DNA of 64,000 bases from the NCBI GenBank assembly GCA_017936375.1, contig JAGBFR010000039.1:22715-86714 (forward strand), given 5' to 3'. The stretch is from Clostridia bacterium (lineage in GTDB: Bacteria; Bacillota; Clostridia; Christensenellales; Aristaeellaceae). The notes beneath the pieces were generated by a model, which was given only the letters and a program-made list of their open reading frames with translations, did no database searches and was not told where the DNA came from. Both the position numbers and the translations under genes were made by a program. Shown one piece after another: positions 35,923-45,927 of the stretch (position 1 is its first letter; every line of letters begins with the position of its first letter).

Positions 35923-37782
35923 ATGAAGAGAATCCTTGCCCTCGCGCTGAGCCTGATGCTGGTTATGAGCATGTTTGCCATGCCCGCGTCCGCGGAAGAG
36001 GCTGCCTACCGCACGCTGTATTCCGGCGAGATCACCTCTCTGAATTATCTGACCACTGCCACCACCAATGAGTTTGCCGTTGCCGCCAACGTGATCGACA
36101 CGCTGGTCGAGTATGACAAGTACGGCCAGGTTCAGCCGTCTCTGGCTGAGAGCTGGGAGTACGACGAGGCGACCCTGACCTACACCTTCAAGATCCGCGA
36201 AGGCGCGAAGTGGGTGAAGGCCGACGGCACCGTCTATGCCGACGTGACGGCGAATGACTTCGTGACCGCCGCCAAGTACGTGCTGGATGCGCAGAACGCC
36301 TCCTCCACCGCCAACATCTTCTACTCCGTCATCGCCGGCGCCGAGGCTTACTATCTTGGCACCAGCACCCCGGAGGAGGGCCAGGAGCCCTACCCGGTGA
36401 TGGACTTTGAGACCGTCGGCGTGAAGGCGCTGGACGACTACACCCTGCAGTACACGCTGGTTGAGCCGTGCCCGTACTTCCTGTCCATGATCACCTACGT
36501 CTGCTTCATGCCGGTCAATGCGCAGTTCCTCGAGGAGAAGGGCGCGGACTTTGGCGTCGCCACCAGCAATGAGAACATTCTCTACAACGGCGCCTATGTG
36601 CTCTCCACCTTCGAGCCGCAGCAGAAGCGCATCTACACCAAGAACGAGACCAACTGGGATGCGGACAATGTCCTGATCACCACGATCGAGCAGACCTATA
36701 ATAAGGAAGCCGGCACCATCTCTCCGGAGCTCTACAGCCGCGGCGAGATCGACTCCGCCTCCATCGACTCCACCATCGCCGCCGAGTGGCTGGCCGACCC
36801 GGAGAAGGCCGACCTCATCCACCCGGTCCGCCAGAGCGGCTTCTACACCTACTTCTACGCGTTCAACTTCGATCCGCAGTTCGACGCCGCGTATGAGCCG
36901 GAGAACTGGAAGCTCGCCGTCAACAACGAGAACTTCCGTCAGTCCATCTACGCCGGTCTTGACCGCGTGAAGGCGATGCTCATCACCGAGCCGGACAATC
37001 CGGAGTCCATCATGTTCAACACCGTCACCCCGCCGGAGTTCGTCTCCATCAACGGCGTTGACTACACCGAGATGGGCGCCCTCGCCGCGATCACCGATCT
37101 GGGCGTGGACACCTTCAACGAGGAGAAGGCCCTTGCCTACAAGGCCGCCGCTGTCGAGGAGCTGACCGCCGCCGGCGCGACCTTCCCGGTCAAGATCCTG
37201 ATGAGCTACAACCCGGGCACCTCCGGCTGGGATGAGGAGTGCGTCGTCGTCGAGCAGCAGCTCGAAGGCCTGCTGGGCACCGACTACATCGACATCATCG
37301 TCGAAGCCGGCCCGTCCTCCGGCTTCCTCAAGGAGGTCCGCCGCTCCGGCAAGTATGCGCTGCTCAAGTGCAACTGGGGCCCGGACTACGCCGACCCGAA
37401 CACCTACACCGATCCCTTCTATGACGGCACCTACAACTGGCCGGAGAAGGCGACCGAGTATCTGGATGAGAACGGCGTCTCCGAGTACTACAAGCTGGTC
37501 GACGCGGCCCGCGCGATCACCAATGATCTGACCGCCCGCTATGAGGCTTACACCGTCGCCGAGGCATTCCTCATCGAGAATGCGATGATCATCCCGTTCG
37601 GCTACGGCAACGGCGGCTACACCGCCTCCCGCCTCAATCCGTTCGAGTCCCAGTTCGCGCCGTTCGGCATTTCCAACGAGCGCTATAAGGGCCAGCCGCT
37701 GCTGGAGAAGCCGATGAATACCGACGAGTATTTCGAGGCTTATGACCTTTGGGAAGAGGAGCGCGCGGCTCTGGCCGAGTAA
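35923..37782 (+). CDS. oppA: oligopeptide-type ABC transporter substrate-binding protein (OppA family)
   Basis: SBP_bac_5-family binding protein, 619 residues, ATG 35923 following a GGGGG site. The signal peptide MKRILALALSLMLVMSMFAM ends at PASA before EEAAY, a type I cleavage site; there is no lipobox cysteine, which is unusual for a Gram-positive binding protein. The mature chain shows LAESWEYDEATLTYTFKIRE and KADGTVYADVTANDFV, the family signature, and NWGPDYADPNTY near the C-terminus. Codon use is strongly biased toward single synonymous codons (ACC, GAC, CTG), indicating high expression. Head gene of oppABCDF; the next gene is 232 bp away behind two hairpins. Confidence 0.93.
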   Translation: MKRILALALSLMLVMSMFAMPASAEEAAYRTLYSGEITSLNYLTTATTNEFAVAANVIDTLVEYDKYGQVQPSLAESWEYDEATLTYTFKIREGAKWVKADGTVYADVTANDFVTAAKYVLDAQNASSTANIFYSVIAGAEAYYLGTSTPEEGQEPYPVMDFETVGVKALDDYTLQYTLVEPCPYFLSMITYVCFMPVNAQFLEEKGADFGVATSNENILYNGAYVLSTFEPQQKRIYTKNETNWDADNVLITTIEQTYNKEAGTISPELYSRGEIDSASIDSTIAAEWLADPEKADLIHPVRQSGFYTYFYAFNFDPQFDAAYEPENWKLAVNNENFRQSIYAGLDRVKAMLITEPDNPESIMFNTVTPPEFVSINGVDYTEMGALAAITDLGVDTFNEEKALAYKAAAVEELTAAGATFPVKILMSYNPGTSGWDEECVVVEQQLEGLLGTDYIDIIVEAGPSSGFLKEVRRSGKYALLKCNWGPDYADPNTYTDPFYDGTYNWPEKATEYLDENGVSEYYKLVDAARAITNDLTARYEAYTVAEAFLIENAMIIPFGYGNGGYTASRLNPFESQFAPFGISNERYKGQPLLEKPMNTDEYFEAYDLWEEERAALAE

Positions 37783-37809
37783 TCCAATCCCCTGATTCAG
37801 GCGAATAAC

Positions 37810-37858
37810 GCCCGGGCGGTGCATCAGCGCCGCCCGGGCATCGCATGTTTTTATGCGA
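37810..37858 (+). terminator. two-hairpin partial terminator between oppA and oppB
   Basis: A perfect 10-bp stem GCCCGGGCGG/CCGCCCGGGC (37810-37839) is followed two bases later by TCGCAT-GTTTTT-ATGCGA (37841-37858), whose loop is the T tract. Such structures usually reduce read-through so that the binding protein exceeds the permeases. Confidence 0.7.
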
Positions 37859-44975: not shown

Positions 44976-44985
44976 GGAGGCGTCT

Positions 44986-45927
44986 ATGCTCAAGGGTAAG
45001 AGGCTGCAGCCGGGGGATACCATCGGCGTGATCGGCCCGTCCGGCGCTGTGCGCAAGGAGGGCGCGGTCGACGAGGCTGTGGCATATATCAAAGAGCTGG
45101 GCTATCAGGTGAAGCTCGGCGAGAGCGCGCATGCGCGCTACGGCTATCTCTCCGGTACGGACGAGGTGCGCGCGAGGGATCTCTGCGCGATGTTTGCCGA
45201 CCCGCAGGTGGACGCCATTGTCTGCACGCGCGGCGGCTACGGCACCATGCGCATGCTCGACATGCTCGATTACGACGTCATCCGCGCCAATCCGAAGGTC
45301 TTCGTCGGATTCAGCGACATCACGGCGCTGCACATCGCCTTCCTTGAAAAATGCGGTCTCGTCACCTTCCACGGCCCGATGGCCACGAGGTGGAAGGATG
45401 AATTCCCCGACGGATTCACGCAGGACGCGCTGGCCCGCGCCGTGACGAAGGCGCAGCCGCTGGGCAATCTAGTGAACGCCCCGGGCTATCACGCGCGGCA
45501 GACGGTGAATTCCGGCTGCGCGGAGGGCATGCTCGTCGGCGGCAATCTGTCGCTGATTGCGGGTACCATCGGCACGCCGTATGAGCTTGACACCAAGGGC
45601 CGCATCCTCTTCATCGAGGAGATCGGCGAGCGCACCTACTGCGTGGACAGGATGCTCACGCAGCTGCGCCTTGCGGGCAAGTTCGAGGACTGCGCGGGTA
45701 TCGTCTTCGGCGATTTCTCCGACTGCCCGGTGGAGTATCCCGAGTTTGGCTTAACCCTCGAGGAAGTCATCCGCGATATCGCTGCCCCCTGCGGCAAGCC
45801 CATCTTCACCGGCTTGCAGGCGGGCCATGTGAGTCCGAAGATCACGCTGCCCTTTGGCGTGCAGTGCCGCATGGACGCGGACGCCTGCACGCTGGAGATT
45901 CTCGAGGCGGCGGTGATTGAAGCATAA
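44986..45927 (+). CDS. ldcA: LD-carboxypeptidase (S66, muropeptide recycling)
   Basis: Serine peptidase of family S66 that removes the terminal D-Ala from murein tetrapeptides; 313 residues, no signal peptide, hence cytoplasmic and acting on imported peptides. ATG 44986 (MLKGKRLQPGDTIGVIGPSG) has GAGGAGG upstream; the ORF from 44965 overlaps the previous gene. The catalytic Ser110 is in FVGFSDITALH, preceded by CTRGGYGTMRMLDMLDYD; the Glu lies in ILFIEEIGERTYCVDRML and the His in LQAGHVSPKITLPFG. Length is standard. MccF-like immunity proteins share the fold, but the murein context favours LdcA. A MITE-like element starts two bases after the stop. Confidence 0.92.
   Translation: MLKGKRLQPGDTIGVIGPSGAVRKEGAVDEAVAYIKELGYQVKLGESAHARYGYLSGTDEVRARDLCAMFADPQVDAIVCTRGGYGTMRMLDMLDYDVIRANPKVFVGFSDITALHIAFLEKCGLVTFHGPMATRWKDEFPDGFTQDALARAVTKAQPLGNLVNAPGYHARQTVNSGCAEGMLVGGNLSLIAGTIGTPYELDTKGRILFIEEIGERTYCVDRMLTQLRLAGKFEDCAGIVFGDFSDCPVEYPEFGLTLEEVIRDIAAPCGKPIFTGLQAGHVSPKITLPFGVQCRMDADACTLEILEAAVIEA

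What the first reader, a model, noticed from the sequence alone, without database searches (positions are those of the whole stretch)
35923..45927. Candidate muropeptide capture and recycling locus with an SH3-bearing permease
OppABCDF is followed directly by alanine racemase, an M20 amidohydrolase and LD-carboxypeptidase, all enzymes of wall-peptide metabolism. The OppC protein carries an extracellular insert of about 160 residues between its first two helices, containing an SH3-like segment (residues 117-178). Bacterial SH3 domains commonly bind peptidoglycan. A permease with its own wall-binding module, next to D-Ala-releasing and racemising enzymes, suggests an uptake system that scans the wall for released peptides. 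I know of no described Opp permease with such an insert.
Basis: partly seen in the sequence, partly recalled or inferred. Interest (0 to 1): 0.75.

Follow-up and report, generated by a model that had tools for sequence, protein, structure and literature searches.

The report
Cell-wall peptide importer with SH3 insert
A gut bacterium carries an operon that probably imports and recycles fragments of its own cell wall, and one membrane part of the pump has gained an extra SH3-like domain on its outer face; this type of operon is known, the added domain is new to me and its job is untested.

Summary
OppABCDF is followed by alr, an M20 amidohydrolase and an S66 LD-carboxypeptidase, and OppC carries about 131 extra residues (113-243) between its first two helices with a bacterial SH3 core: SH3_3 matches 40 of 45 homologous inserts. 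No structure could be predicted.

The wall-peptide reading is backed mainly by insert-less orthologues, whose operons hold NlpC/P60-SH3 (30 of 31), LdcA (13 of 31) and an upstream epimerase (22 of 28), like B. subtilis dpp-ykf. Insert-bearing loci have alr (28 of 34), but LdcA or M55 in only 11 of 34; 18 show alr alone.

So the insert does not make the linkage. It looks gained once (45 of 45 in one clade) and is in at least 76 of 300 genomes of one family. Paralogous OppCs hold other domains in the same loop, including an RCC1-like propeller. Peptidoglycan binding is untested.

Unexpected: peptide-binding proteins of this family mostly lack a lipobox, unlike other families of the order, with Omp85 in 0 of 60 relatives. 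Insert-less OppCs also pair with such proteins, so docking is only a possibility.

The parts
34291..35664 (+). transglutaminase-like cysteine peptidase, 457 aa, Cys-His-Asp motifs; conserved upstream neighbour in close relatives
   Evidence: Pfam Transglut_core 1.2e-18; motifs GDC 322, GHDW 357, ADLS 373; upstream in 11 of 35 insert-bearing loci with enough flank
35923..37782 (+). OppA, solute-binding protein; signal peptide ending ASA-EE, no lipobox
   Evidence: SBP_bac_5 166 bits; closest solved chains AliB, AliD, AliC, AmiA; N-terminus read
38090..39031 (+). OppB permease, 313 aa (start inferred)
   Evidence: BPD_transp_1; start
39031..40446 (+). OppC permease, 471 aa, with extracellular insert
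   Evidence: BPD_transp_1 88.8 bits, OppC_N 35 bits
39367..39759 (+). insert in the TM1-TM2 loop of OppC, residues about 113-243, absent from close orthologues
   Evidence: alignments
39451..39558 (+). bacterial SH3 core inside the insert, residues 141-176
   Evidence: Pfam SH3_3 8.3e-6; 2kt8 profile hit; hhalign
40462..41505 (+). OppD ATPase
   Evidence: ABC_tran 108.3 bits, oligo_HPY 44.8 bits
41498..42439 (+). OppF ATPase
   Evidence: ABC_tran 104.6 bits, oligo_HPY 37.7 bits
42643..43788 (+). alanine racemase, one of two copies found in the held genome
   Evidence: TIGR00492 252.6 bits, cut-off 168; two copies
43803..44975 (+). M20 amidohydrolase
   Evidence: TIGR01891 366.3 bits, cut-off 153.75
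44965..45927 (+). S66 LD-carboxypeptidase (LdcA-like), GFSD, EEIGE and GH motifs present
   Evidence: Peptidase_S66 150.5 and S66C 127.3 bits; motifs, their reading as the catalytic triad recalled

Best explanation
The locus encodes a type I (Opp/Dpp) ABC importer for peptides freed from the cell wall, with enzymes that use them: LdcA trims the terminal D-Ala, alanine racemase returns D-Ala to L-Ala, and the M20 amidohydrolase and transglutaminase-like peptidase finish the breakdown. In this bacterial family OppC gained, as far as the tree shows once, an SH3-containing module of about 131 residues in the loop between TM1 and TM2, which faces outwards. Shown: gene content, conserved linkage, one insert-bearing clade, SH3 sequence match. 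Inferred: the substrate, each enzyme's place in the path, the outward side of the loop (from the known topology of OppC) and the role of the module. The role I think most likely is an accessory contact at the outer face that keeps the permease in touch with wall material or with the loaded binding protein.
For: Linkage across public loci. Insert-less orthologues with at least 4.5 kb downstream: NlpC/P60-SH3 30 of 31, LdcA 13, M19 9, M55 4; upstream epimerase 22 of 28. Insert-bearing loci: alr 28 of 34, LdcA 8, M20 8, M55 6, any listed gene 31 (labels rest on one scanned representative per cluster, or on the window gene in it). The window locus itself has LdcA with alr and M20. Partial control: near the three other SBP_bac_5 genes of the own genome the five other ORFs that I annotated were no wall-peptide enzymes. 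SH3. One clade: 45 of 45, support 0.927. Whole-insert matches in 76 of 300 family genomes by my count of rows. The locus alr is a second copy.
Against: OppA is closest in the PDB to AliB and AmiA, general oligopeptide binders (as recalled), not to DppE or MppA. In the 34 insert-bearing loci counted no NlpC/P60, epimerase or M19 cluster lies downstream; only 11 have LdcA or M55, and 18 have alr alone. Alr and M20 are not wall-specific. L065, L079 and L091 had no listed gene. Wall linkage does not depend on the insert. No structure or binding data.
Confidence: 0.57

Rival explanations
1. A general oligopeptide importer of the Ami/Ali kind. Alr, M20 and LdcA are neighbours that feed ordinary amino-acid use, and wall peptides are at most minor cargo.
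For: OppA is nearest to AliB (2.9e-76), AliD, AliC and AmiA over nearly the full length; DppE only 1.5e-28. 18 of 34 insert-bearing loci have alr as the only listed gene; M20 and Alr serve many pathways.
Against: Insert-less orthologues sit with enzymes that act on D- and gamma-linked peptides: LdcA, NlpC/P60-SH3, epimerase, M55. The other peptide-binding genes of the own genome showed no such neighbours among the five ORFs annotated.
Confidence: 0.3
2. The SH3 insert docks or retains OppA, which lacks a lipid anchor in this family without a detected outer-membrane marker.
For: Family SBP_bac_5 N-termini: 27 of 30 readable, pattern hits 2, of which I judge one (L204) real. Other families of the order: 24 of 26 readable, pattern hits 21, two more plausible by eye (L227, L232), L223 doubtful. 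Lgt in 60 of 60 and LspA in 47 of 60 relatives; Omp85 in 0 of 60. OppA of insert-bearing loci and window: 3 pattern hits of 38 readable, one clear (L059), two doubtful (L090, L093). Insert-less public loci: 22 of 23 readable, and 8 more by eye, so 30 of 32 with L109 doubtful and L114 without.
Against: Insert-less OppCs pair with unanchored OppA too: L047, L048, L049 and the C59 operon of the own genome. LspA was not found in the own genome (81% complete) nor in 9 more of 36 family genomes. Insert-OppA co-divergence beyond the permease is nil (partial r -0.09, p 0.79), while insert-OppB is 0.35 (p 0.001). Loops of 142-228 residues also occur in 3 of 12 OppCs of other families.
Confidence: 0.2
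3. The insert is a tolerated loop expansion with little function of its own; this loop simply accepts domains.
For: Loops of 25-323 residues in 40 sampled family OppCs and 26-228 in 12 from other families; several unrelated insert types. The insert is less conserved than the permease core (15 of 72 columns of the SH3 part at 90% or more against 147 of 228).
Against: Fifteen insert residues are conserved at 95% or more over divergent loci, and no insert-less sequence of those in the tree falls inside the clade.
Confidence: 0.25

Closest known systems
Bacillus subtilis dpp-ykf operon (dppB-E transporter next to ykfA-D)
   Same: peptide ABC importer beside murein-peptide enzymes; insert-less orthologues also have epimerase, NlpC/P60-SH3, LdcA and M55 types. 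Operon layout and DppE binding of murein tripeptide from passages of PMC2954226 and PMC10009517; that ykfA is LdcA-like and dppA is M55 is recalled.
   Different: window operon has alr, M20 and a transglutaminase-like peptidase, and no epimerase or NlpC/P60 was seen beside it; the binding protein is AliB-like without lipobox; OppC has the SH3 insert
Streptococcus pneumoniae Ami-AliA/AliB permease
   Same: nearest solved relatives of OppA
   Different: no SH3 insert known to me in its permeases; AmiC is recalled as having a long extracellular loop in the OppB-like subunit (not checked)
E. coli MppA with the Opp permease (murein tripeptide uptake)
   Same: binding protein for murein tripeptide (PMC10009517, passage); that MppA works through OppBCDF is recalled
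   Different: specialised binding protein; a periplasm; no insert known to me
RCC1-propeller OppC paralogue of the same genome (L007)
   Same: domain inserted in the same TM1-TM2 loop of OppC
   Different: unrelated domain of about 320 residues; no wall-peptide enzyme among the neighbouring ORFs annotated

Membership tests
Opp/Dpp type I peptide importer | SBP_bac_5 protein, two BPD_transp_1 permeases, two ABC_tran plus oligo_HPY ATPases in one gene cluster | tested here: met
Bacterial SH3 domain (SH3_3) | profile match over the curated cut-off | tested here: inconclusive
   window insert 26.3 bits against 27; 40 of 45 inserts match at E<=1; divergent relative L174 29.7 bits, over cut-off
Bacterial SH3 domain (SH3_3) | SH3 beta-barrel fold | not testable with these tools
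   structure prediction switched off
Bacterial SH3 domain (SH3_3) | binding to peptidoglycan (common, not universal) | not testable with these tools
   needs an experiment
dpp-ykf muropeptide operon | LdcA-type S66 carboxypeptidase in the operon | tested here: met
dpp-ykf muropeptide operon | dipeptide epimerase and NlpC/P60 endopeptidase in the operon | tested here: not met
   not among the nine genes of 34.3-45.9 kb scanned; 0 of 34 insert-bearing loci downstream, 0 of 35 upstream for the epimerase; but NlpC/P60 in 30 of 31 and epimerase in 22 of 28 insert-less loci
dpp-ykf muropeptide operon | binding protein specific for murein tripeptide (DppE-like) | tested here: inconclusive
   sequence nearest to AliB, not DppE; binding not testable
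TIGR00492 alanine racemase | match over cut-off; PLP lysine motif | tested here: met
   252.6 bits; KADAYG at 43; reading of the motif recalled

The most novel reading that the evidence does not exclude
The outer TM1-TM2 loop of OppC is a platform on which peptide importers of Clostridia mount exchangeable extracellular domains (SH3, RCC1-like propeller, at least two further domains without a Pfam match). In a family whose peptide-binding proteins have given up lipid anchors and for which no outer membrane marker was found, these domains would hold the binding protein or its cargo at the permease; the SH3 version would do so at the wall, for muropeptides.
Probability: 0.17. Interest if true: 0.75.

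Novelty: new variant of a known kind. Interest (0 to 1): 0.48.

Why it matters
It gives a clean natural experiment: closely related permeases (72-75% identical) with and without an SH3 domain, so that the effect of an added extracellular domain on an importer can be tested directly. The scarcity of lipoboxes on peptide-binding proteins of this family, in a lineage with Lgt and without detected Omp85, raises the question of how such a cell keeps soluble binding proteins at its transporters.

Tried and rejected
'Insert linked to loss of the OppA lipobox': looked strong in public loci, then weakened, because three insert-less relatives of the family also lack it (L047-L049) and none of the four SBP_bac_5 proteins of the own genome fits my lipobox pattern (L004 has a near miss, SVSC); it follows the family. 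'Long OppC loops are special to this family': rejected, 3 of 12 OppCs from other families also have loops of 142-228 residues. Insert-OppA co-divergence: not found. 'Insert came from the NlpC/P60-SH3 neighbour': no support, hhalign 13% over 19 columns. Promoter and terminator scans at chance level. Rfam: nothing up to E 0.1.

Literature: all ten searches used. The queries combining OppC, ABC importer or ABC permease with SH3, RCC1, insertion or loop terms gave no paper, nor did 'Christensenell' with 'lipobox' or the muropeptide query. This is absence from that library for those word sets only. Two papers were opened, passages only; the rest were seen as listings.

Rows dropped and limits: L094 (frame broken) was left out of the OppC alignments and the tree. 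A2 held 33 of the 45 OppCs. The tree held 28 of the 35 insert-less public loci. In the co-divergence test L074 (masked N-terminus) and sequences closer than 0.03 were dropped (n 35 for OppA). The neighbourhood count used 34 of 45 insert-bearing and 31 of 35 insert-less public loci downstream, 35 and 28 upstream; the window and L046-L049 were not in it. The loci are not independent: some are close relatives. The 40 family and 12 other OppCs were chosen by hand from the listed rows, insert-bearing orthologues left out. One search scored at most 12 candidates per genome, so 76 of 300 is a lower bound. My first count of OppA lipoboxes missed L090 and could not read L048; one search mended this.
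Full report
What is there. The window holds oppA, oppB, oppC, oppD, oppF, alr, an M20 amidohydrolase gene and an S66 LD-carboxypeptidase gene on the + strand from 35923 to 45927, with a transglutaminase-like peptidase gene just upstream (34291-35664). oppBCDF are packed tightly, and so are alr-M20-ldcA; the gaps oppA-oppB (307 bp) and oppF-alr (203 bp) are larger. The genome is an 81% complete assembly of 2.85 Mb in 75 contigs. 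The insert-bearing loci of the public scan are titled as Clostridia, Clostridiales or Eubacteriales MAGs, many from ruminants and other animals, one as Christensenella sp., one as Christensenellaceae bacterium, one as Candidatus Alectryocaccomicrobium and one as 'bacterium'.

The insert. The two strongest neighbouring hydrophobic windows of OppC start at 66 and 274; nothing between is hydrophobic enough to be a helix. Four orthologues with 72-75% identity over the permease lack residues of about 113-243 and run from a short loop into the conserved motif around FGTN. The inserted part contains a bacterial SH3 core: SH3_3 at 8.3e-6 in the window and in 40 of 45 homologues at E<=1, best 8e-9. Its profile has 2kt8, 2kq8 and 2kyb as top PDB matches, best E 4.6e-4, then, at 0.066 to 1, mostly SH3 chains such as ABL1 and spectrin (that the first three are SH3 domains is recalled). 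In the family's genomes it also hits SH3 cores of other proteins; of those fetched and scanned, L168 and L171 are SpoIID-SH3, L170 PG_binding-SH3, L169 VanW with an SH3_3 match just under cut-off. hhalign against L168, L170 and L171 gives 96.6% and 6.5e-10, but against four NlpC/P60-SH3 proteins only 13%. The fold could not be predicted.

Distribution. A search of 391 genomes of the class found the insert only in the own genome at E<=1e-10; few of those genomes belong to the family. Among 300 genomes of the family 76 have a match over the whole insert profile (E<=3e-43, my count of rows; a lower bound); 109 pass the looser 1e-6 limit, the rest by SH3 cores, mostly of other proteins, or by divergent inserts such as L174. 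The genome-contig scan kept 80 loci, 45 with and 35 without the insert. On a tree of the permease without the insert, the 45 insert-bearing sequences (44 public loci and the window) form one clade, support 0.927, with the insert-less sequences outside it (28 public loci, L046-L049, two upstream tandem copies and three outgroups). One gain explains this.

Neighbours. Insert-less public orthologues lie with a mandelate-racemase-type epimerase, NlpC/P60 with SH3b, LdcA, M19 and M55 peptidases and class A beta-lactamase-like hydrolases (one representative per cluster was scanned). Counts: downstream NlpC/P60-SH3 30 of 31, LdcA 13, M19 9, M55 4; upstream epimerase 22 of 28. Insert-bearing loci: alr 28 of 34, LdcA 8, M20 8, M55 6, transglutaminase downstream 2 and upstream 11 of 35; any listed gene 31 of 34, the exceptions being L065, L079 and L091. 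LdcA or M55 is present in only 11 of these 34, and 18 have alr as the only listed gene. So the link to wall-peptide enzymes does not need the insert and is better documented without it; alr goes with the insert-bearing clade. The layout resembles B. subtilis, where ykfA-D lie next to dppB-E (PMC2954226, passages) and where DppE was found to bind murein tripeptide and its genes to sit with recycling genes (PMC10009517, passages). OppA here is nearest in sequence to AliB and AmiA rather than DppE, so its specificity is open. Near the other three SBP_bac_5 genes of the own genome the five further ORFs that I annotated were a dehydrogenase, a trypsin-PDZ protease, ZnuA, a DNA polymerase and an FAD protein; this control is partial. 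Alr in this locus is one of two copies found.

What the insert does. Three ideas were weighed. Wall contact: fits the SH3 type and the window's operon, but insert-less relatives manage with the same kind of neighbours and other paralogues carry unrelated domains in the same loop. Docking of OppA: suggested by the scarcity of lipoboxes on family peptide-binding proteins (27 of 30 readable, 2 pattern hits, one judged real; other families 24 of 26 readable, 21 pattern hits, two more plausible by eye, one doubtful), with Lgt in 60 of 60 and LspA in 47 of 60 relatives, not in the own genome, a lipobox on the ZnuA of the own genome (read by eye) and Omp85 in 0 of 60. But insert-less OppCs with unanchored OppA exist (L047-L049; the C59 operon), and the insert shows no co-divergence with OppA beyond the permease (partial r -0.09, p 0.79) while it does with OppB (0.35, p 0.001; OppD 0.12, p 0.10; alr 0.03, p 0.38), which hints at a contact with the partner permease or at shared constraint. 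Neutral expansion: the loop takes lengths of 25-323 residues in 40 family OppCs and 26-228 in 12 others, but fifteen insert residues are nearly invariant. I lean to an accessory contact at the outer face, without being able to say with what.

Beyond the finding. OppC of another operon in the same genome (L007) carries an RCC1-like propeller of about 320 residues in the same loop (RCC1_2 93 bits, cut-off 22). Of 100 family genomes 32 matched it at E<=1e-60; by my count 19 rows match over nearly the whole length, one more (G473) from residue 287, one of the 19 (G512) with an internal stop. L156, L157, L159, L162 and L163 carry a further large loop domain; L156 and L157 show no Pfam match for it. 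L240, L241, L275 and L278-L281 have loops of 207-234 residues; L241 and L279 show no match there over cut-off. I found no paper on domains inserted in this loop in the library searched.

Verdict. A real SH3-bearing variant of a known kind of peptide importer operon, probably for wall peptides.

Noticed in passing
L007:1492-3366 (own genome C66:3362-5236, minus): Paralogous OppC of 625 aa with an RCC1-like beta-propeller inserted in the same TM1-TM2 loop.
   Followed up: partly
L156, L157, L159, L162, L163; L240, L241, L275, L278-L281: OppC proteins with other large TM1-TM2 loop domains; of those scanned (L156, L157, L241, L279) none has a Pfam match over cut-off there; L240 and L241 are from other families of the order.
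   Followed up: partly
L177-L206 against L207 and L209-L233: Best SBP_bac_5 protein per genome: in the window's family almost none has a lipobox (1-2 of 27 readable), in other families of the order nearly all do (21-23 of 24 readable). Lgt present in 60 of 60 relatives, LspA in 47, Omp85 in none. L199 looks like an uncleaved helix rather than a signal peptide.
   Followed up: partly
L072, L073, L075, L076, L081, L086: oppC is followed directly by alr, with oppD and oppF missing from the locus, so the importer may borrow ATPases from elsewhere.
   Followed up: no
L079, L080: Two opp operons in tandem, the upstream OppC without the insert and the downstream one with it.
   Followed up: no
L016, L045, L094 (G026 C22): OppC reading frame broken in one assembly, true loss or sequencing error.
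   Followed up: no
window 34291-35664: Transglutaminase-like peptidase upstream of oppA; among the loci compared its cluster is seen only beside insert-bearing operons, where no NlpC/P60 gene was seen; possibly a replacement for it.
   Followed up: partly
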